A program made the position numbers and the translations under genes. Shown here piece after piece: positions 40,616 through 55,455 of a stretch of DNA of 64,000 bases. The DNA is taken from assembly GCF_003574655.1 (NCBI RefSeq), contig NZ_QNUM01000002.1, forward strand, positions 620,001-684,000, given 5' to 3'. The stretch is from Cohaesibacter haloalkalitolerans (lineage in GTDB: Bacteria; Pseudomonadota; Alphaproteobacteria; Rhizobiales; Cohaesibacteraceae). Within the stretch, counting starts at the first letter, position 1, and each line of letters opens with the position of its first letter. The notes below the pieces were generated by a model. It was not told the DNA's origin. It did not search any database and saw only the letters and a list, made by a program, of their open reading frames with translations.

Positions 40616-43600
40616 ATGAACTTTCTGAACAAAGCCACCACTGAAGCTTCGGCGGCGACCCTGCAGGATGAGACGGTTGCATCTGCGTGGCAGGTGGGAC
40701 AAGGCCCTCCCTCCAACCCGAGGGAGTCAGCTGCCAACTGCCATGGCCCCTTGCCCTTTCATCTCTCCATCCTTGCGTCGTGCAAGGGCATCGGTACCCC
40801 TTCCCTTGAAGCCTTTCTGCTGGAGGCAGCCCGACAGGGAGGCGATCTGGCCAAACGCTGGATGCGGGAAGGCAAGCTGGATGAAGCGCTCTATTTTGCC
40901 ACGGCAGCACGGCATATGGATGTGCCTTTTGTTGCCAGTCCTTCGGCAGCCTCGGTTTATCCCGTGCCAGACAACTGGCCCATTGAAAAACTCGATGCCT
41001 TCACGTGGATTCTCGTCAAACCCTTTGCCCGGCTGGATGACGCGCCTCCCGTGTCGGATACCCTCTACCTCTGTGCCCCGCAAGGCGAGGAGCTGGACAG
41101 GCTGGCCCAGCGGCTCAGCGAAGATGATGCCCTCAGACAGCGGATACGGCTGACCACGCCAACACAACTCAGGGCCATGCAGCGTGCGTCCGCCTCCAAC
41201 GCGGTCATGAACCGGCATGTGTTCCGGTTGCGACTGGACTTCCCTCACCTGTCGGCGCACCAGAAATTCGCTATCCGCCATTCCGCCTTTCTCATTGCCG
41301 TTCTTACACTGATCATTGCCGGTGCCCTGCTGTTGCCTCCCCTCGGCATTGCACTCAACCTGTTGACCATTGCGCTGTTCCTGACCATGAGCACGCTGCG
41401 GTTCATTTCCGTCAAGCGATTGCCTCACACCCGAACCATGCAGGCGAAGCGCCTGCAGGCTTTGCTCGCTCCGGCAAGAGACATCACCGCCCCCACCGAC
41501 TGGCCCAGTTATGCCGTCATGGTGCCGCTGTTTCATGAGGGGCGCGTGGTGCCGGATCTGGTCGAGGCGCTATGCAAGCTCGACTATCCGTGCGACCGTC
41601 TGACCTGCTACCTGTTGCTGGAAGAAGAGGACGATGAAACCCGGAGCGCACTGGACCAGATCCACCTGCCTGTCTTCATCGAACGGGTCATCGTGCCAAG
41701 AGGAGGGCCGCAGACAAAACCCAAGGCGCTCAACTACGCCCTGTCCTTCGTGCAATCGGACCTCACTGTCATCTATGATGCGGAGGATCGTCCCGATCCG
41801 CAGCAGCTCAAGATTGCCGCCCTCACGATGATGAGGGGTGGCCCTTCGCTGGCCTGCCTTCAGGCGAGACTGGCCATCGACAATGCCCATAGCAATTTCC
41901 TGACGCGCCAGTTCGCCATCGAATATGCGGCCCTGTTTGACGGACTGCTGCCGTTTCTGGCCTTTGACCGGCTGGTCGTGCCGCTCGGAGGTACGTCCAA
42001 CCATTTCCGCACCGATGTGCTCAAGCAGATTGGTGGCTGGGACCCCTACAATGTGACCGAGGACGCGGATCTGGGCCTGCGCCTGTCGCGTTTTGGCTAT
42101 CGCATAGAAACCATCGCCAGCGACACCTGGGAGGAAGCGCCGGAGAGCTATTCGGCCTGGCTCAAGCAACGGACCCGCTGGTTCAAGGGCTGGATGCAGA
42201 CATGGGTCGTGCATATGCGTCGCCCCGGCGAGCTCTATCGCAAGCTCGGCAAATCGCGCTTTCTCTCGTTCCACATCATGATCGGCAGCATGCTGCTATC
42301 CACCCTCATCCATCCACTCTATTTCCTCACCTTCGGTATCACCCTCTGGGATCTGGTCACCTATGGCAGCGCCAACGGCGAGCTGTTCTTCATTCTCTTG
42401 GCCTTCAACCTGATCAATCTCACTCTGGGCTATGGTGCGGTGATGCTGCTCGGTGCCATCTGGGGGCGGCGGCGCTATGGCTTCGGCCTGCTCTCGGTTC
42501 TTGAAATGCCCCTTTACTGGTTGCTGATGACACCGGCGGCATGGCGCGCCCTCTATCAACTGATGCGAGACCCGCACCATTGGGAGAAAACCGCCCACGG
42601 CCTGTCCGGCAACCGCTCCCGGGTGCCGCAGGTCAAGGTTAGCTCTGGCATCGGCGGTCGCAATGTGCCACTTTCGGTCCGATTCAAAAGCCATTTCAGA
42701 CGGAGGCCTTTTTCCATGCGCCGCGACCCATCAACCCCCAAGGGGACCTTGCACACGCTCACCATTTCCTCAAAGGCTCTTGAGGCCAATCTGCTGGGTG
42801 ACGTGAGCGACCGGGAGGTCATCGTCTATGTTCCCCACGGGCACGACGGAGCCGGGTTGCCGCTGCTGGTCGATCTGGTCGGCTTTACCGCCGGGGGGCC
42901 TGCGCATGTCAACTGGAAGAACTTCGGAGAGAATGTGCCTGAACGCCTGGACCGGCTGATCGCCTCGGGCGAAATGCCGCCAGCCGTGGTGGCCTTTCCC
43001 GATTGCTTCACCCGTCTTGGCGGCAACCAGTATGTCAATTCGGCGGCCATGGGCAACTGGGAAGACTTCCTCATCGCCGACATGACCCCGACCATCGAGG
43101 CGCGGTTCGGCTGTGGCGGAGCGGGCAAACGCGGCCTGTTTGGCAAATCGTCAGGCGGCTATGGCTCGATCCTGCATGCGATGAAGCACGCAGATTTCTG
43201 GTCGGCCGCAGCCTGCCTTTCAGGCGACATGGCGTTCGAGCTGTGCTATTTGCCGGACATGCCGAACCTGCTGCGCGCCCTGGCCCGCAAGAACAATTCG
43301 GTCGAGGATTTTCTCACCGATTTCGAGGATGGGCCGAAATATGATGGCAAGGACATTCACGCCCTGATGACGCTGGCCATGGCGGCAAGCTATGACCCGG
43401 ACCCGTCCGCCTTCTGCGGCATCCGCCTGCCGGTCTCCATGCATGACTGCTCACTGATCGAGACGCGCTGGGAGAACTGGTTGCAGTGGGACCCGGTGGT
43501 GCTGGCCGACAGGGCCGAGGTGATCGACAGTCTGAAATCCCTCAAGGGGTTGTGGATCGAATGCGGCTATGTGGACCAGTATAATCTGGTCTATGGCGCG

Positions 43601-43732
43601 CGTCGCCTGCACGCCAAGCTGGAAAAGGCCGGAGTGGACCACATCTACGAAGAATTCCCGGATAATCACTCCTCGATCGACTATCGCATGGACCGGTGTC
43701 TGCCGTTCCTCGTCCGGGCACTGGAAGACTGA
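40616..43732 (+). CDS. Fusion: family 2 glycosyltransferase plus esterase (alpha/beta hydrolase)
   Basis: The frame is unbroken for 1038 residues. Residues about 1-200 are a soluble N-terminal part; membrane helices near 225-260 and 530-660 enclose a GT2 domain with VPLFHEG (about 300), YDAEDRPDP (DXD, about 387), TEDADLGLRL and QRTRWFKGW (QxxRW, about 518), so it polymerises or transfers sugar at the inner membrane. A basic linker (about 660-705) leads to an esterase domain that looks like a separate gene's start (MRRDPSTPKG), with nucleophile Ser in GLFGKSSGGYGS (about 845) and His in FPDNHSSIDYR. The pairing suggests synthesis plus deacylation or acyl transfer on one polysaccharide. The product is unknown. 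Confidence 0.8.
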   Translation: MNFLNKATTEASAATLQDETVASAWQVGQGPPSNPRESAANCHGPLPFHLSILASCKGIGTPSLEAFLLEAARQGGDLAKRWMREGKLDEALYFATAARHMDVPFVASPSAASVYPVPDNWPIEKLDAFTWILVKPFARLDDAPPVSDTLYLCAPQGEELDRLAQRLSEDDALRQRIRLTTPTQLRAMQRASASNAVMNRHVFRLRLDFPHLSAHQKFAIRHSAFLIAVLTLIIAGALLLPPLGIALNLLTIALFLTMSTLRFISVKRLPHTRTMQAKRLQALLAPARDITAPTDWPSYAVMVPLFHEGRVVPDLVEALCKLDYPCDRLTCYLLLEEEDDETRSALDQIHLPVFIERVIVPRGGPQTKPKALNYALSFVQSDLTVIYDAEDRPDPQQLKIAALTMMRGGPSLACLQARLAIDNAHSNFLTRQFAIEYAALFDGLLPFLAFDRLVVPLGGTSNHFRTDVLKQIGGWDPYNVTEDADLGLRLSRFGYRIETIASDTWEEAPESYSAWLKQRTRWFKGWMQTWVVHMRRPGELYRKLGKSRFLSFHIMIGSMLLSTLIHPLYFLTFGITLWDLVTYGSANGELFFILLAFNLINLTLGYGAVMLLGAIWGRRRYGFGLLSVLEMPLYWLLMTPAAWRALYQLMRDPHHWEKTAHGLSGNRSRVPQVKVSSGIGGRNVPLSVRFKSHFRRRPFSMRRDPSTPKGTLHTLTISSKALEANLLGDVSDREVIVYVPHGHDGAGLPLLVDLVGFTAGGPAHVNWKNFGENVPERLDRLIASGEMPPAVVAFPDCFTRLGGNQYVNSAAMGNWEDFLIADMTPTIEARFGCGGAGKRGLFGKSSGGYGSILHAMKHADFWSAAACLSGDMAFELCYLPDMPNLLRALARKNNSVEDFLTDFEDGPKYDGKDIHALMTLAMAASYDPDPSAFCGIRLPVSMHDCSLIETRWENWLQWDPVVLADRAEVIDSLKSLKGLWIECGYVDQYNLVYGARRLHAKLEKAGVDHIYEEFPDNHSSIDYRMDRCLPFLVRALED

Positions 43733-50080: not shown

Positions 50081-50769
50081 CTGCTTGCCTTTTGTTCCAT
50101 TTTTTATGCAACACTGCGCTCAAAAGCTGAAATTCACGTTATAAATCTTGGTTTCCAAACCGTTAATTGACCAGTTTGACGCTTTGTTCAAAGTGTATCT
50201 CGGTTGAACAAACCTAAAATACTTGCATTATACAAAGGCTTCGCAATTCAAAAAGTGCCCCTAATAAGAACCCACTCGATATACTCGGCGATGTCCCGTT
50301 CTTCTTTTGGTTGTATTTCCCTGCTGTCGTTGCTTCCGGTTTGGGCGCATCAGCTCAGCTACAAGACGCACCGGAGACTCAACCTTGCCTTCTCGCCCGA
50401 ATGGGTCCTTCCCGCAAAGGCAAAAGACAGTTCCGGAACTGTGGAGCTAGAAGAAGAATATTTCGCCCAAATCCTTCTCACCGGCTATTACACCGTTATT
50501 CTTGACTTAAGCGCTTTGGTGCCAGGAATGCTCCTGATCGGCCTTTCCCACTCCGATGTTGACAGACGAAAACCACTTGTCCTAAATCATCCTCGACAAA
50601 TTCCGACAACGCAGGGTAAGGCCTTGCAAGCTTCATCAAACTAGGAGTTAGAAGCTTCTGGCCGATTGGGTAACCAGGATCATCAGAACCACTGCAACTG
50701 ATAAGCCTATTGCCAAACCATCCATTTGCGCCTCCTTCCAGCCAATGCACGTCCAAGAGACGGAACCAC
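50081..50769. other. Long AT-rich intergenic region left of the biosynthetic operon
   Basis: These 689 bases separate the GGDEF gene and the ATP-grasp operon. The first 300 are much AT-richer than the neighbours. An open plus-strand frame (50204-50644) has no ribosome site and an unlikely composition, so I do not call it. One microprotein candidate (50648-50725, minus) has strong support and is listed alone. The promoter of the operon must lie over or beside it. Confidence 0.5.
50648..50725 (-). CDS. Candidate 25-residue single-helix membrane microprotein
   Basis: The frame from ATG 50725 encodes a 25-residue peptide, MDGLAIGLSVAVVLMILV then TQSARSF, that is one hydrophobic helix with a short basic end. 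GGAAGGAGG stands five bases before the ATG, a textbook ribosome site. Such peptides often regulate or stabilise membrane proteins. It is divergent from the ATP-grasp gene, with only 44 bases between the start codons. I recognise no family. Confidence 0.5.
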   Translation of the reverse strand: MDGLAIGLSVAVVLMILVTQSARSF

Positions 50770-51846
50770 ATGCAACAAATCCCGACATCACAGGTCGAAC
50801 TGGACCTGATATCCCAGAAATTCGTTGATGCAGCAAATGCGCGCGGCATTGAAACAAGCGTCAAGATCGACGAAACCGACCAGCGGCAGTGGTTGGCCTT
50901 CTCGGTTGGTGAGACAGAATATCTCTGGTCGATCGGCGTCCCCGGCACCGCAGCATGCGATTGTGCATTGCTCCAGAACCACCCCCATCACTGGGGTACC
51001 ATGGGGCAGAATATCAACCGCGAGGCGCTTATCCTGACATGCGACAAGATTCTGACCAAGCAGCATCTGCTTGCAAAGGGTTTCTCGGTTCCCAAGGGTT
51101 TCATGTTCCGGCGCCGAAACATCGCAGAAGCCTATGCGGCATTTGATGCCTTTAATGGTCCGATCTGTGTCAAACCCAACAACGGCTCTTTGGGCAACCA
51201 TGTTCATCCCGGGCTCACCAACAGGGAATGGTACCAGAAGGCCATCGACGACGTGGCAGCAAGCTACCCCAAGGTCCTCGTTGAGGAGAGCGTGGAAGGG
51301 TCACATTTCCGATTTTTCTACGTCCATCCAAAGGTCGTCGGTATCAGACATGGCTTGCCAATGCATGTGGTTGGTGATGGCGTCTCATCAGTGCGTCAAC
51401 TCACCGACGCAAGGAACAAGGAACGCAGGAAGCGAGCTATTCCATCGCAAATGCCCTTTCCTGTTACCGATTTCATGCTGGATTATCTCGCTCGGACTGG
51501 CTGGTCAATGGACGACATTCCTGCCGTATCCGAAAAGGTTTATCTCAGTGGTGCATCCAATGGCACAGCAGGAGCCGACACAATCCTGTGCTGGGATGAG
51601 ATACATCCCAGTTACCGGGAGCTTGTAGAGAAAGCTTGCGCCTCCTTTCCGGGGCTTTTTATCACCGGTGCGGACATCATCATCAAGGATATTGCCCAAC
51701 CTGCCAGACCGGATAACTATTGGCTTCTCGAGGTCAACATGAACCCGGCCATGGCGGGGTTTTATTATCCCTGGGCGGGTGAACCGGTGGATCTTGCCAC
51801 CAAGGTGATGGATATGCTCCATGCCCGCAGCGCCGGAACCTTTTAA
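50770..51846 (+). CDS. ATP-grasp ligase, cyanophycin synthetase/GshF-like
   Basis: The 358-residue protein has the ATP-grasp order: a lead domain with HHWGTMGQNINREALIL, KQHLLAKGFSVPKGF, the ATP-binding ICVKPNNGSLGNHV, VVGDGVSSVRQLTDARNK and the metal site LLEVNMNPAMAGFYY. The family activates a carboxylate as acyl phosphate and joins it to an amine or thiol; cyanophycin synthetase and GshF do so with amino acids. Nothing tells the exact substrate. I start at ATG 50770 rather than the open frame at 50710. It leads the four-gene unit ending at 54202, with gaps of 62, 80 and 54 bases. Confidence 0.8.
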   Translation: MQQIPTSQVELDLISQKFVDAANARGIETSVKIDETDQRQWLAFSVGETEYLWSIGVPGTAACDCALLQNHPHHWGTMGQNINREALILTCDKILTKQHLLAKGFSVPKGFMFRRRNIAEAYAAFDAFNGPICVKPNNGSLGNHVHPGLTNREWYQKAIDDVAASYPKVLVEESVEGSHFRFFYVHPKVVGIRHGLPMHVVGDGVSSVRQLTDARNKERRKRAIPSQMPFPVTDFMLDYLARTGWSMDDIPAVSEKVYLSGASNGTAGADTILCWDEIHPSYRELVEKACASFPGLFITGADIIIKDIAQPARPDNYWLLEVNMNPAMAGFYYPWAGEPVDLATKVMDMLHARSAGTF

Positions 51847-51908
51847 GCCAAACGTGGAAAAGGGGCGTGCGTCCCCCTGCATAAAGATCATCAGGAAGCT
51901 TGATACCC

Positions 51909-52163
51909 ATGACCGAATTGAATGACATTAGCCTCGAGGCCCTTATCCGCTGGATGAAGCTGCATCTGGCAACCGTGTTGGGCGAACCCGTGGAACAGAT
52001 TGCCACCGATGCATGCCTGTCGGATTTTGATCTGGACTCGATCGATGCCGTCACAATGGCATTTGAAATGGAGGAGCGGTTTGGCATTCCCGTCAATCCG
52101 GAGACCTTCATGGAAGGCGATCTTCAGATCGGGCAGATCGCAGCCACGATCTCCCAAGGATGA
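51909..52163 (+). CDS. Free acyl/peptidyl carrier protein
   Basis: The 84-residue protein has a carrier fold: four helices with LSDFDLDSIDAVTMAF, in which Ser44 is the phosphopantetheine site (DSI, as in many aminoacyl and acyl carriers), and EERFGIPVNPETFMEGDLQI at the end. It would hold a building block as a thioester made by the neighbouring ligase. It is not beside fatty-acid genes, so it is probably not the housekeeping AcpP. AGGAAG precedes ATG 51909. Confidence 0.88.
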   Translation: MTELNDISLEALIRWMKLHLATVLGEPVEQIATDACLSDFDLDSIDAVTMAFEMEERFGIPVNPETFMEGDLQIGQIAATISQG

Positions 52164-52243
52164 AGCAAGGGTGAAGCTTCGGCTCGTCTGGAGATCTGCC
52201 GCTTGTTCCGATCCGCTCCCATCCAACCCGTTTGGACAAAACA

Positions 52244-53008
52244 ATGCGTAAACACGACGTCTACACCCGTTGGGACTATATCCGTGAGGAGATTTCTCTG
52301 GACGCTCTGTCAAGGGAAGATCAGGCCAGGTTTGATCTCATCTGCACCAACATAATGCGGCAGCGGGAACGGGTCGCAAAATTTGCCCACACCCAGTGCG
52401 GTGACATGCTGGTGTGGAATCCGGACGGACCGCTTCCCCCTTTATGCTGGTGCTTCAATGATTGGAGCGAGGCAATGCTGTTCTCGCGCAAACTCAGCCC
52501 GCAGCAACCCTTTTTTGCCAGCCTCTCGATGCACGCCAACACGGCGGACTGGCTGGCCAAAACGCGTTTTAACGACCTGCTGGCAAAGCGATATCTCGAT
52601 TCCATGGAAGATATCATTGCCGACAAGCCCGTTCTGGTCGGGGGCAATTGTCAGGGGGCGCCGATTGCCGAATCCATGGTCCAGCAGCTGGCAGGTCGCC
52701 GCGGCCCGATGCCGTTTCTGATCACCCTTGAGTATATTGGCCGGCGCAGTGGTGAGTGGCCCCGCCTGATGCTGTTTGGCAAGCAGAGCCGCTTCAACCC
52801 GTTTGACAATGGCCATGACCCCTTGCCTTACTGGCAGGAAAGGGGAAAACACTTTGCATGGGCAACACTTTCCGTCGGCCACGGCCAGTATTTCAAGGAG
52901 CCGAACATCGACGTTCTGGCCAGGGTCGTTGCGCAGATGTCCGGTCGATTGTCCCGCTCCGAACCCTTGCCGCAAGGCCCCTTCGAGCTACCAGCCCTTG
53001 CAGGATGA
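52244..53008 (+). CDS. Alpha/beta-hydrolase with Cys nucleophile (thioesterase/acyltransferase-like)
   Basis: The 254-residue protein has the nucleophile elbow GGNCQGAPIA with Cys136 where hydrolases usually have Ser, and a late His213 in SVGHGQYFKEPN. PHA synthases share a Gly-x-Cys-x-Gly elbow and use it to hold an acyl chain, which suggests an acyltransferase or thioesterase that takes its acyl group from the carrier protein next door. The N-terminal 100 residues are unusual, with CWCFNDWSEAM. The start at ATG 52244 has GGACAAAACA before it; a TTG at 52232 is possible. The catalytic acid is not certain. Confidence 0.68.
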   Translation: MRKHDVYTRWDYIREEISLDALSREDQARFDLICTNIMRQRERVAKFAHTQCGDMLVWNPDGPLPPLCWCFNDWSEAMLFSRKLSPQQPFFASLSMHANTADWLAKTRFNDLLAKRYLDSMEDIIADKPVLVGGNCQGAPIAESMVQQLAGRRGPMPFLITLEYIGRRSGEWPRLMLFGKQSRFNPFDNGHDPLPYWQERGKHFAWATLSVGHGQYFKEPNIDVLARVVAQMSGRLSRSEPLPQGPFELPALAG

Positions 53009-53062
53009 AGCGGACCCAGACCGCAGCCTGAGCGGTTCACCCGGTGGCCTCAGGTGAACCGA

Positions 53063-54202
53063 ATGCAAGGCAATACCATTTGCCAGAGAGGATGGCGCAG
53101 TCCTTTGTCTATCATTACGATCGGTTATCTCCCTATCTGGGAAACACTCTTTCATGAAGTCTATCCGCCACAGCGTCTGCGCGCTCTTGCCGCCGAAGCA
53201 GCATTGCAGGAAGCCCGGATCAGTGTCCTTGACCTGTCCGATTGCGATCCGGCTGAGGGGACCATCCTGACCCATTCGGTTTCGGCTCAAGGCCAGATTT
53301 CAGGGCGCCTCCCACTTCCCGATGTCGTGTTTTTTCTGGGCACCCCGACCATAGGTTCGACCATGGACTGGCAAGAACCGTTGATTGACTGGATCAAGGC
53401 AAGCCGTCCCCATGTCGCTGATGTTGGGATTGAAAAGACAGAACTGCGATCGGTGTTCACCAACAGCCCGTGTGAGAAATATCTTCTGCCCGATGCGGAA
53501 GTTCCTAAGGACCAAACTGCGGCAAGGGTGCGCGCATTTGCGCTTGAGCAGGGAGGGGTGGTGATCAAGCGCTCAAGCAGTGCCCGGGGAGTGGGGCTGT
53601 TCTTCATCCTGCGGGAACAGGATCACTGGGTTGCCCGGTTCAAGCAGACCACGCTGCGGGGAACACTCGATGAAGCCGTCGATGCGGTTGTAAGCCGCAT
53701 AGCCGGGCGATTGCGCTATCGCGATTTCCTCATGCAGCGCCATGTCCGTTCGGTTGCCAGCGACGGGCGCCCGCTGGACATTCGCGTCCATGTTCACAAG
53801 CGCCCCGGCGGCTCATGGGATGTTGTCCGCTCCTATGTCCGACTGGCCGAATGCGGCATGCCAATGACCAATATCAGTCAGGGCGGCTATCAGGGACCGC
53901 TTGCCGGTGCCATGGAGCACCGCAGCCACAGGCGCGCCGAGGAGATCGAGGCGGAAGCGCACGCGGCCGCCATCGAGATTGCCCGGCAGCAGGACAGAAG
54001 CGCATCGTGCCCGCTGTCCGAGCTTGGCATCGACTTCCTGATCGACGAGGATGATCGGCTGTGGCTGATTGAAACCAACACTCTGCCCGGCAGCCAGCTG
54101 CATGAGCATCAAAGGGCGGTCTTCCACATCGAGTATGTTCGCTGGATCGCCGAACAAGGCTTGTCATCCCCTCGTCCGGGGGGTGAGCCCCAATTTCGAT
54201 AA
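53063..54202 (+). CDS. ATP-grasp ligase, YheC/YheD-like
   Basis: The 379-residue protein differs from the first ligase. It has a lead with ITIGYLPIWETLFHEVYPPQ and FFLGTPTIGSTMD, the ATP-binding GVVIKRSSSARGVGLFFI, then LDIRVHVHKRPGGSWDVV and the metal site ELGIDFLIDEDDRLWLIETN. These match YheC/YheD-type ATP-grasp proteins of spore coats and some peptide pathways. With the carrier protein and hydrolase it could add a second amino acid or similar acid. AGGTGA precedes ATG 53063; a GTG at 53054 is possible. Confidence 0.78.
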   Translation: MQGNTICQRGWRSPLSIITIGYLPIWETLFHEVYPPQRLRALAAEAALQEARISVLDLSDCDPAEGTILTHSVSAQGQISGRLPLPDVVFFLGTPTIGSTMDWQEPLIDWIKASRPHVADVGIEKTELRSVFTNSPCEKYLLPDAEVPKDQTAARVRAFALEQGGVVIKRSSSARGVGLFFILREQDHWVARFKQTTLRGTLDEAVDAVVSRIAGRLRYRDFLMQRHVRSVASDGRPLDIRVHVHKRPGGSWDVVRSYVRLAECGMPMTNISQGGYQGPLAGAMEHRSHRRAEEIEAEAHAAAIEIARQQDRSASCPLSELGIDFLIDEDDRLWLIETNTLPGSQLHEHQRAVFHIEYVRWIAEQGLSSPRPGGEPQFR

Positions 54203-54408
54203 CACTCCCCGGCTCTGAAGTGGCTCAGGCTGTGCAAACCCGGCGCACGAAGCTGCACGGAGGAGCCAACAGATCAACACCTCAAGAAGGGATGACGGGT
54301 GAAGCGGAGCGCGCCAAGAGCGCCTTTGCCGCGTTGAGTTCAGACCGATTGCTGCCACCAAGGAAGACGCCACAAGCCAAAGCCCACTGCCGACGGTTGG
54401 AGGAAAGC

Positions 54409-55444
54409 ATGTTACAGATGCGGCGTGATATGATATTGTTATCAAATTACGCCACCCTTCTCCCGTTGGTCACCATGCATCACTTTCTAATCATTGTTCC
54501 TGATAGCAGTGTCCTGTTTGAAGCAGCAGGCATTATCGACATTTTATCTCAGGCCAAGGCTGTCCTTACGTCTTCGGATAAGGAAGCAGTTTATTCCTGC
54601 GAAATCGCATCCTGTGATTCCCATCACATTGTTCGAGGACGATCCGGGATGGCTATCCTCGCAGACCGGTGCCTCGCAGACCTCTCTCCCGAGAGCCAAT
54701 ATGATACTCTGCTCGTTACCAGCCGTGGTTTGGGCAGTGAGCAGCAGGATATGGTCGTCGATTGGCTGCATCAGGCTGCGGCAAATGCCAAACGCATCAT
54801 TTCCATCTGCGGTGGGGCCTTCCTGCTGGCGAAGGCAGGCCTTCTTGATGGCCGCAAGGCGACAACACATTGGCAAATGCTGGACAAGCTGCAGCAAGAA
54901 TTCCCTGCGGTTCAGGTGCAGCGAGGACCAATCTATGTGCAGGACGGTCCGGTCTGGACGTCTGCCGGTGTCACCGCCGGTTTTGACCTCATCCTTGCAA
55001 TCATCGAACAGGACTGCGGGACAAGCATTGCGCGTCAGGTGGCACAGAAATTTGTCATGTATTTGCGTCGCCCCGGCGGACAGCTGCAATTCAGTGAAGC
55101 CATCACGCCTTCCAGAAAAGGCAATGGGCTTGTTTCTGATCTTGAAAGCTGGATCGTTGCAGACCTGACCCGGGATTTGTCGGTCGAAGCGTTGGCTTGC
55201 CGAGCAGCAATGAGCCCACGCAATTTTTCACGTGTTTTTACCCGTGAGGCAGGCATGTCCCCCGCAAGATTTGTGGAAGAGCAGCGGCTGGCGCTTGCCC
55301 GACTTATGCTGGAGCAAAGCGCTGAAAATCTGGACGTCATAGCGCAGAAAACCGGCCTGGGGAATGGCCTCAATCTGCGCCGCGTTTTTGAACGGCGCCT
55401 GCAGCTTACTCCGACCGAATATCGGCAGCGGTTTGGATCTGTCA

Positions 55445-55455
<11 letters not shown>
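54409..55455 (+). CDS. GlxA-family AraC-type transcriptional regulator
   Basis: The 348-residue regulator has an N-terminal DJ-1/PfpI-like domain (HHFLIIVPDSSVLFEAAGII, then SICGGAFLLAKAGLLDGRKA) and two C-terminal AraC-type helix-turn-helices (LSVEALACRAAMSPRNFSRV, LDVIAQKTGLGNGLNLRRVF). In GlxA relatives the first domain binds a small metabolite. I start at ATG 54409 because GGAGGA stands just before; the frame is open to 54220. It lies after the biosynthetic operon by 206 bases and before GAPDH, and its stop codon is inside an inverted repeat, so it probably controls gap, itself or the operon. Confidence 0.85.

What the first reader, a model, noticed from the sequence alone, without database searches (positions are those of the whole stretch)
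50770..54202. Four-gene operon: two unrelated ATP-grasp ligases, a free carrier protein and a Cys-nucleophile hydrolase
Seen: four plus-strand genes with short gaps (62, 80, 54 bases), encoding a cyanophycin synthetase/GshF-like ligase, an 84-residue carrier protein with Ser44, a hydrolase with GNCQG, and a YheC/YheD-like ligase. Known: ATP-grasp enzymes activate carboxylates as acyl phosphates, and some load amino acids onto carrier proteins (BtrJ and BtrI in butirosin synthesis). Inference: the operon activates an acid, holds it on the carrier, passes it on through the Cys enzyme and extends it with the second ligase. I know no described pathway with exactly this set.
Basis: partly seen in the sequence, partly recalled or inferred. 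Interest (0 to 1): 0.9.

Follow-up and report, generated by a model that had tools for sequence, protein, structure and literature searches.

The report
Carrier-protein cassette with two ATP-grasp ligases
A small, rare set of four genes, kept together in distantly related bacteria, looks like a miniature peptide-building line in which an unusual kind of ligase stands where the usual loading enzyme would be; what it makes is unknown.

Summary
In detail: four plus-strand genes at 50770-54202 (ATP-grasp ligase, 84-residue carrier protein, Cys hydrolase, YheC/D-like ATP-grasp ligase), dN/dS 0.08-0.24 against the nearest relative. They are a real unit: each of the six loci found with an orthologous hydrolase holds the other three genes within about 7 kb, in alpha- and gammaproteobacteria, with gene order partly reshuffled. 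Two Azospirillum plasmids hold the set with an unrelated Ser hydrolase instead.

New here: the hydrolase is a thioesterase. Its model matches solved thioesterases, it has a Cys136-Glu163-His213 triad, and the seven fused relatives scanned are NRPS-like proteins (adenylation-carrier-thioesterase). In seven of the eight sets the order ligase-carrier-hydrolase matches that module, with an ATP-grasp ligase in place of the adenylation domain.

Best reading: ATP-grasp 1 loads an acid onto the carrier, the thioesterase releases or transfers it, ATP-grasp 2 adds an amine. Loading, substrate and product are inferred. A locus with carrier, hydrolase and ATP-grasp 2 but no ATP-grasp 1 leaves the loader open; glycan genes near several loci keep glycan decoration in play. 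Butirosin BtrJ/BtrI is the nearest precedent. New variant of a known kind.

The parts
50770..51846 (+). ATPg1: stand-alone 358-aa ATP-grasp ligase of a family related to the ATP-grasp domains of cyanophycin synthetase and GshF
   Evidence: with profile A8 the five set members score 555-575 bits (they helped to build it), a paralogue outside it 456, and the two other ATP-grasp hits in the six genomes searched 101 and 107
51909..52163 (+). ACP: free 84-aa carrier protein, phosphopantetheine site Ser44 (DLDSIDAV)
   Evidence: PF00550 E 2.6e-12; DLDS, DAV and MA invariant in 8 of 8 set ACPs
52244..53008 (+). HYD: alpha/beta-hydrolase thioesterase with Cys136 nucleophile (GGNCQGAP), Glu163 and His213
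   Evidence: AlphaFold mean pLDDT 93.1; 42 of the 50 PDB fold matches listed are thioesterases or hold one; Cys and His in 22 of 22, acid in 21 of 22 aligned sequences; 7 of 7 long fused relatives scanned, of 12 held, are adenylation-carrier-thioesterase proteins
53054..54202 (+). ATPg2: YheC/D-like ATP-grasp ligase (GTG 53054 or ATG 53063 start)
   Evidence: PF14398 E 5.9e-37; D327, E340, N342 invariant in 8 of 8; fold matches are ATP-grasp proteins, from a model of low confidence
50560..50769 (+). Leader and promoter region just upstream of ATPg1, about 95% identical to that of G012, above the synonymous-site identity of the genes; function not known
   Evidence: no Rfam match of note

Best explanation
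The four genes form a dedicated biosynthetic cassette that works like a one-module non-ribosomal peptide line without an adenylation domain. ATPg1 activates an acid (most likely an amino acid) as an acyl phosphate and passes it to the phosphopantetheine arm on Ser44 of the free ACP. HYD, a thioesterase of the same family as the C-terminal domain of adenylation-carrier-thioesterase proteins, takes the acyl group onto Cys136 and releases it or hands it to a small acceptor. ATPg2 forms a further amide bond, before or after release, giving a small amide or dipeptide-like product. Shown: co-conservation, purifying selection, conserved acidic and Asn residues of ATP-grasp enzymes in both ligases, conserved carrier Ser, thioesterase fold and triad, kinship of HYD with NRPS-like thioesterases. 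Inferred: that ATPg1 is the loader, the acyl-phosphate to thioester step, the order of steps, the substrates and the product.
For: Whole set in each of the six loci found with orthologous HYD and, with a Ser hydrolase instead, on 2 Azospirillum plasmids. ATPg1-ACP-hydrolase are adjacent in this order in 7 of these 8 loci; in Amphritea the ACP lies apart. A second locus in the Roseobacter MAG holds an ATPg1 paralogue beside a set-type ACP, with no HYD or ATPg2 match in the 20 kb taken, which ties ATPg1 to the ACP. HYD relatives: 7 of 7 long fused ones scanned (of 12 held) carry adenylation and carrier domains before the thioesterase. Triad C136/E163/H213. Amphritea adds a diaminopimelate-decarboxylase-like PLP enzyme in the same operon, which also matches BtrK, named in the PDB as L-glutamyl-[BtrI acyl-carrier protein] decarboxylase. 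No adenylation gene on the window's contig C17. One phosphopantetheinyl transferase match in the genome.
Against: G095 has ACP, a Ser hydrolase and an ATPg2-like gene but no ATPg1 of this family, only a 101-bit match on another contig, so ATPg1 is not always the partner of such an ACP. Adenylation genes exist elsewhere in every genome searched (8 matches in G000; one on the contig of the second Roseobacter locus about 14 kb away, one about 85 kb from the Afifellaceae set, some within about 40-80 kb of the G095 locus) and could load the ACP in trans. No residue that would show thiol rather than amine acceptor specificity was identified. BtrJ, the precedent, seems to lie in another ATP-grasp clade (passage of PMC4431377). 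No export gene common to the sets was recognised in the gene lists, many of them read by eye; Azospirillum sp. TSH100 has type I secretion and MFS genes nearby.
Confidence: 0.45

Rival explanations
1. The roles of the ligases are swapped: ATPg2 loads the carrier, and ATPg1, like the ATP-grasp domains of cyanophycin synthetase and GshF, makes the peptide bond.
For: G095 keeps ACP, hydrolase and an ATPg2-like gene without ATPg1. ATPg1's nearest solved relatives, cyanophycin synthetase and GshAB, form amide bonds (recalled).
Against: The Roseobacter MAG has an ATPg1-ACP pair with no ATPg2 match in the 20 kb taken. The G095 ATPg2 is divergent (186 bits against 531-584 for set members, which helped to build the profile). 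ATPg1 and ACP show the lowest dN/dS and are adjacent.
Confidence: 0.2
2. The ACP is loaded in trans with a fatty or aromatic acid by ordinary fatty-acid or adenylation enzymes. The two ATP-grasp ligases make a small peptide on their own, and HYD transfers the acyl group from the ACP onto it, giving an N-acyl peptide.
For: Each of the six genomes searched has adenylation enzymes. Acyl transfer by thioesterase-fold enzymes is known in general (recalled).
Against: No adenylation, ketosynthase or acyltransferase gene was recognised next to the sets in the gene lists, many ORFs being judged by eye only. A paralogous ATPg1-ACP pair occurs without a thioesterase match, though an adenylation gene lies about 14 kb from it.
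Confidence: 0.15
3. The set decorates a surface glycan or lipid with an amino acid or short peptide rather than making a free metabolite.
For: A glycosyltransferase gene lies beside both Azospirillum sets, with a weakly sulfotransferase-like gene next to it in one. A family 2 glycosyltransferase-esterase gene lies about 7 kb upstream in the window (40616-43732) and in G012; a similar glycosyltransferase lies about 2.4 kb from the second ATPg2-like gene of G095; sugar-nucleotide genes lie 4-8 kb from the second Roseobacter ATPg1-ACP pair and a UDP-glucose dehydrogenase gene about 8 kb from the first Roseobacter set. Amphritea has a sulfotransferase inside the operon.
Against: In the window and G012 the glycosyltransferase is separated from the set by recQ-, GGDEF- and MsrA-type genes. 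No glycan gene was recognised near the Afifellaceae or Thiorhodococcus sets. No membrane acyltransferase was recognised in the sets (by eye).
Confidence: 0.15
4. The genes are chance neighbours with unrelated roles.
For: The window genome's congeners mostly lack them: the hydrolase was found in 2 of 20 family genomes, the window's own included.
Against: Each of the six orthologous-HYD loci found carries all four genes within about 7 kb, in genomes of two classes and with reshuffled order.
Confidence: 0.01

Closest known systems
Butirosin side-chain pathway (BtrJ ATP-grasp ligase, BtrI carrier, BtrK decarboxylase, BtrH acyltransferase)
   Same: A stand-alone ATP-grasp ligase with a free carrier protein, a Cys-dependent enzyme that takes the acyl group off the carrier and, in Amphritea only, a PLP decarboxylase that matches BtrK. 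BtrJ loading BtrI is recalled knowledge; BtrH as ACP:aminoglycoside acyltransferase was read in passages of PMC10318531.
   Different: HYD is an alpha/beta-hydrolase thioesterase; BtrH is papain-like (PF14399), and HYD has no PF14399 match at E up to 1. There is a second, YheC/D-like ligase, and no oxygenase was recognised in the set. ATPg1 matches CphA and GshF, not evidently BtrJ (passage of PMC4431377).
[quoted passage not shown]
   Same: A stand-alone ligase paired with a free carrier protein that is aminoacylated (passages of PMC9437257, and PMC2922099); the ATPg1-ACP pair of the Roseobacter MAG looks like the same arrangement.
   Different: The ligase here is an ATP-grasp enzyme (acyl phosphate), not an aminoacyl-tRNA-synthetase fold (aminoacyl adenylate).
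NRPS-like adenylation-carrier-thioesterase proteins
   Same: HYD is homologous to their C-terminal thioesterase, and gene order ligase-carrier-thioesterase matches.
   Different: The adenylation domain is absent from the set and an ATP-grasp ligase stands in its place; the three parts are separate proteins; a second ATP-grasp ligase is added.
Cys-type thioesterases that close beta-lactam or beta-lactone rings (SulM, ObiF1)
   Same: Thioesterase fold, Cys nucleophile, carrier substrate; SulM is among the fold matches.
   Different: The catalytic acid of HYD follows the sixth strand (Glu163), not the seventh as in SulM and ObiF (passages of PMC11298585), and the motif is N-C-Q, not Q-C-N.

Membership tests
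Butirosin-type carrier loading (BtrJ/BtrI/BtrK/BtrH) | ATP-grasp ligase encoded with a free carrier protein | tested here: met
   8 of 8 full sets found
Butirosin-type carrier loading (BtrJ/BtrI/BtrK/BtrH) | Ligase is of the BtrJ family | not tested
   No BtrJ sequence was at hand; a passage of PMC4431377 groups BtrJ with the carbamoyl phosphate synthase clade whereas ATPg1 matches CphA and GshF
Butirosin-type carrier loading (BtrJ/BtrI/BtrK/BtrH) | BtrK-like PLP decarboxylase in the cluster | tested here: not met
   Not in the window set; recognised only in Amphritea, 1 of 8 sets; the best match of that protein in the window genome is 27% identical and on another contig
Butirosin-type carrier loading (BtrJ/BtrI/BtrK/BtrH) | Papain-like BtrH acyltransferase (PF14399) | tested here: not met
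   HYD is an alpha/beta hydrolase; no PF14399 match at E up to 1
Butirosin-type carrier loading (BtrJ/BtrI/BtrK/BtrH) | Carrier is acylated by the ATP-grasp ligase | not testable with these tools
   needs purified proteins and mass spectrometry
NRPS-like A-T-TE module | Adenylation domain (PF00501) in the set | tested here: not met
   None on the window contig C17 (8 matches elsewhere in G000); none in the four genes. Other sets' neighbours were in part judged by eye
NRPS-like A-T-TE module | Carrier with phosphopantetheine site | tested here: met
   PF00550 in the window ACP; DLDS invariant in 8 of 8
NRPS-like A-T-TE module | Thioesterase homologous to the module's C-terminal domain | tested here: met
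   7 of 7 long fused relatives scanned (of 12 held) hold AMP-binding, PP-binding and a thioesterase stretch, one with a sulfotransferase domain and one with a Mur-ligase part; the thioesterase match is under Pfam's cut-off in three and the carrier match in one
Cyanophycin synthetase / GshF | Score over the curated family cut-off | tested here: not met
   160.9 bits against 850 (CphA) and 150.8 against 425 (GshF)
YheC/D-like ATP-grasp (PF14398) | Score over Pfam's gathering cut-off | tested here: met
   127.7 bits against 26.8
aa:CP ligases | Aminoacyl-tRNA-synthetase fold of the ligase | tested here: not met
   The matches of both ligases over the family cut-offs or with the best scores are ATP-grasp families; no aminoacyl-tRNA synthetase family is listed
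Beta-lactam/lactone-forming Cys thioesterases | Cys nucleophile | tested here: met
   Cys136 in 22 of 22 aligned sequences
Beta-lactam/lactone-forming Cys thioesterases | Catalytic acid after strand 7 (position II) | tested here: not met
   The conserved acid (E/D in 21 of 22) is Glu163, right after the sixth strand at 157-162, the position I of PMC11298585; the geometry itself was not measured

The most novel reading that the evidence does not exclude
This is an undescribed family of adenylation-free peptide-building modules: an ATP-grasp ligase related to cyanophycin synthetase stands in for the adenylation domain of an A-T-TE line, working in trans with a free carrier and a Cys thioesterase of NRPS kinship, and a second, YheC/D-like ligase finishes the product. 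It would give ATP-grasp loading of carrier proteins a second origin beside BtrJ, and a YheC/D-like ligase a biochemical role (I recall none in proteobacteria).
Probability: 0.37. Interest if true: 0.75.

Novelty: new variant of a known kind. Interest (0 to 1): 0.62.

Why it matters
Non-ribosomal assembly is usually recognised by its adenylation domains. A line whose loading step is an ATP-grasp ligase would be easy to overlook, so its products could be unknown. The small size (four proteins, about 1,080 residues in all) makes the whole system easy to rebuild in vitro, and it would test directly whether ATP-grasp enzymes can act as general carrier-protein loaders.

Tried and rejected
Chance neighbourhood: rejected by the recurring clustering. 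Cyanophycin or glutathione synthesis: rejected, far under the family cut-offs and only the ATP-grasp part matches. Beta-lactam- or beta-lactone-forming thioesterase: catalytic acid in the other position. AraC/FtrA-like regulator at 54220-55455 as a fifth member: not found in the same place in G012, so left out. Sulfotransferase as a general partner: clear only in Amphritea; weak, below cut-off, in one Azospirillum locus and not detected by Pfam in the other; none of the window genome's five matches lies on contig C17. Adjacent type I secretion genes in Azospirillum sp. TSH100: none recognised around the window (by eye), taken as a neighbour only. A riboswitch in the leader: the single Rfam match, at E 0.39, is a HOTAIR lncRNA family. 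A small minus-strand ORF in the leader: the frame stays mostly open in both species but changes its residues freely (by eye), so not called a gene. Virus or phage carriage: no relative found with the ATPg2 profile in viral contigs and no ATPg2 match in phage records; the other three genes were not searched there. The first genome-contig scan with the single HYD sequence found nothing; the alignment scan found 21 loci, 4 of them with orthologous HYD and 17 at 26-35% identity. The ATPg2 model is of low confidence (mean pLDDT 66.8), so only its ATP-grasp fold is used. Sequence-level homology of HYD and the Azospirillum Ser hydrolase: none detected. Start codons of some relatives' genes were not settled (L019 ATPg1, L020 ATPg2), and the aligned stretches there begin where the match begins. 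Literature: the listings and passages of nine papers show no description of this set; no paper was read whole, and the 2009 amidoligase survey (PMC3268129) is not held and could contain it.


Full report
What is there. Searches show four plus-strand genes at 50770-54202 with gaps of 62, 80 and 45 or 54 bases. The last gap depends on the start of the fourth gene; the relative G012 keeps the GTG at the place of 53054 but not the ATG at 53063. Pfam and NCBIfam give: an ATP-grasp ligase whose best matches are the ATP-grasp parts of cyanophycin synthetase and GshF, far under those families' cut-offs; a PF00550 carrier of 84 residues with Ser44; a protein with only a marginal thioesterase match; and a YheC/D-type ATP-grasp ligase (PF14398). 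I call them ATPg1, ACP, HYD and ATPg2. Next to them lie a GGDEF protein on the other strand upstream and an AraC/FtrA-like regulator downstream. That regulator is not found in the same place in G012, so I do not count it in.

Is it a unit? The window genome (G000, 5.0 Mb) has one ATPg1. HYD is rare: 2 of 20 genomes of the family, the window's own included; 7 of 397 of the order at E up to 1e-3, of which three (G000, G012, G243) are orthologues; and 4 of 385 of the class, of which only the window's own is an orthologue. A scan of genome contigs with the HYD alignment gave 21 loci; four carry orthologues (38-43% identity) and 17 carry distant relatives (26-35%). One of the four, L021, is the same place as G243. 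In each of the six distinct orthologous-HYD loci found (G000, G012, Afifellaceae MAG, uncultured Roseobacter MAG, Thiorhodococcus drewsii, Amphritea pacifica) the other three genes lie within about 7 kb. G012 is a congener of G000, so five are well separated; they span Alpha- and Gammaproteobacteria. Order is the same in G000, G012 and Afifellaceae; ATPg2 is divergent in Roseobacter and Thiorhodococcus; in Amphritea the ACP is divergent and two ATPg1 copies are present. Azospirillum lipoferum 4B and Azospirillum sp. TSH100 carry ATPg2 divergent from ATPg1-ACP-hydrolase on plasmids, but their hydrolase is a Ser enzyme (GQSTGG) with no detectable sequence relation to HYD. Between G000 and G012, dN/dS is 0.084 (ATPg1), 0.087 (ACP), 0.206 (HYD) and 0.237 (ATPg2). 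ATPg2 is rare as well: with profile A6 at E up to 1e-15 only the window genome in 385 of the class, and 5 of 398 in the phylum, being the window genome, G095 and three genomes with longer fused proteins. ATPg1 at E up to 1e-60 was found in 1 of 196 genomes of the Roseobacter MAG's order, that MAG itself. These were even draws from larger groups.

What HYD is. The AlphaFold model is confident (mean pLDDT 93.1). Of the 50 PDB matches listed, 42 are thioesterases or hold one (juvenimicin TE, YbtT, Pks13 TE, AB3403, SulM, NocB and others) and 8 are other hydrolases; TM-scores are about 0.4-0.6. Among 22 aligned sequences (the window and the 21 loci) Cys136 and His213 are invariant and position 163 is Glu or Asp in 21. 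They sit just after the fifth (130-135), eighth (204-209) and sixth (157-162) strands. Passages of PMC11298585 give the nucleophile after strand 5 and the His after strand 8, with the acid after strand 6 (position I) in most NRPS thioesterases and after strand 7 in the ring-closing SulM and ObiF. Of twelve relatives held in frames longer than 850 residues I scanned seven with Pfam (the others were too long together or cut at the locus end): all seven hold adenylation and carrier domains before the thioesterase, with the thioesterase match under Pfam's cut-off in three and the carrier match in one. So HYD belongs with the terminal thioesterases of NRPS-like adenylation-carrier-thioesterase proteins.

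How it may work. In seven of the eight full sets the genes read ATPg1-ACP-hydrolase, which matches adenylation-carrier-thioesterase with the adenylation domain replaced (Amphritea is the exception). No adenylation gene lies on the window's contig, though G000 has eight matches elsewhere. A second place in the Roseobacter MAG holds an ATPg1 paralogue (456 bits) next to a set-type ACP, with no HYD or ATPg2 match in the 20 kb taken; an adenylation gene does lie about 14 kb from it. This suggests ATPg1 as the loader. Against it, G095 has an ACP, a Ser hydrolase and a divergent ATPg2-like gene and no ATPg1 of this family. Both ligases keep the acidic and Asn residues expected of an active ATP-grasp enzyme (D302, E321, N323 in ATPg1, matching those of GshAB in the alignment; D327, E340, N342 in ATPg2); their role as metal ligands is recalled knowledge. 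One phosphopantetheinyl transferase family match exists in the genome. I therefore favour: ATPg1 loads, HYD releases or transfers, ATPg2 adds an amide. The acid, the acceptor and the product are unknown. Amphritea gives the best hint: its operon adds a sulfotransferase (PF13469) and a PLP decarboxylase related to diaminopimelate decarboxylase (E 7e-35) and to BtrK (E 2e-24), named in the PDB as the decarboxylase of L-glutamyl-BtrI. An amino acid is then the likeliest cargo.

Glycans. Glycosyltransferase or sugar-nucleotide genes lie beside the Azospirillum sets, about 7 kb upstream in the window and in G012, near the second ATPg2-like gene of G095 and within 4-8 kb of both Roseobacter loci. 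In the window, genes of other kinds stand between. I recognised none near the Afifellaceae or Thiorhodococcus sets, where some neighbours were scanned and the rest read by eye. Decoration of a glycan therefore stays a serious rival (0.15).

Comparison with what is known. The nearest precedent is butirosin (BtrJ loading BtrI; recalled). Features tested: ATP-grasp plus free carrier is met; BtrK is absent from the window set; BtrH, which is papain-like (PMC10318531 passages), is not HYD; whether ATPg1 is of BtrJ's family could not be tested, and a passage of PMC4431377 places BtrJ in another clade. aa:CP ligases (PMC9437257 and PMC2922099 passages) share the logic of a stand-alone ligase with a free carrier but are of another fold. 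Scleric acid (PMC6335953 passages) combines an ATP-grasp enzyme, an ACP and a thioesterase within a larger NRPS cluster in which the ATP-grasp enzyme is proposed to join building blocks, not to load the carrier. The listings of nine paper searches show no description of this four-gene set in the open library; the 2009 amidoligase survey is not held.

Verdict. The mechanism remains inferred. I rate it a new variant of a known kind, with a fair chance of being an undescribed class of adenylation-free modules.

Noticed in passing
L042:11899-17983 (Agrobacterium tumefaciens Tul002 pAt): A 1660-residue protein joins a weakly GH76-like N-terminal part (E 0.07), a YheC/D ATP-grasp domain and two ATP-grasp domains like ATPg1, followed by a Ser hydrolase gene, beside type I secretion genes and a BapA-like gene; no carrier protein is listed among the 12 annotated features.
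   Followed up: partly
L051:3751-6549, L052:6806-9616, L053:5814-8705: Proteins of about 930-970 residues with a C-terminal YheC/D ATP-grasp domain (Pfam run on L051 and L052; profile A6 only for L053); the one in L051 lies next to an ORF that looks, by eye, like a repeat-rich adhesin.
   Followed up: partly
L023:9929-16803, L006:12076-18937, L025:9893-15305, L039:9902-15252: Stand-alone relatives of HYD lie near a weakly matching carrier-protein gene and, in L006, an annotated AMP-binding protein and carbamoyl transferase: another, different carrier system.
   Followed up: no
L033:7175-10645 (Aliiroseovarius marinus) and L008:8497-12600 (Paracoccus aminophilus): Two HYD relatives with odd architectures: adenylation-carrier-sulfotransferase-thioesterase, and Mur ligase-adenylation-carrier-thioesterase.
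   Followed up: no
L049:7207-9714 and L050:14652-15824 (genome G095): A reduced set (ATPg2-like gene, Ser hydrolase, ACP) without ATPg1, and a second ATPg2-like gene about 27 kb away with a family 2 glycosyltransferase gene about 2.4 kb from it.
   Followed up: partly
window 50560-50769: The 210 bases before ATPg1 are about 95% identical to those of G012, more conserved than synonymous sites of the genes; no meaningful Rfam match.
   Followed up: partly
window 54220-55455: An AraC-type regulator with a DJ-1/PfpI domain (FtrA-like) and low GC3 (0.568) follows the set but is not found in the same place in G012.
   Followed up: partly
window 40616-43732: A 1038-residue protein with a family 2 glycosyltransferase part and an esterase part, about 7 kb upstream of the set, also present in G012.
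   Followed up: no
L020:3316-4260 (Thiorhodococcus drewsii): A DDE transposase gene lies about 3 kb from the set, a hint of mobility.
   Followed up: no
L019:11882-15847: Next to the Roseobacter set lies a circularly permuted ATP-grasp gene (PF14403) followed by ORFs that look, by eye, like its usual alpha-E, transglutaminase and Anbu proteasome-like partners.
   Followed up: no
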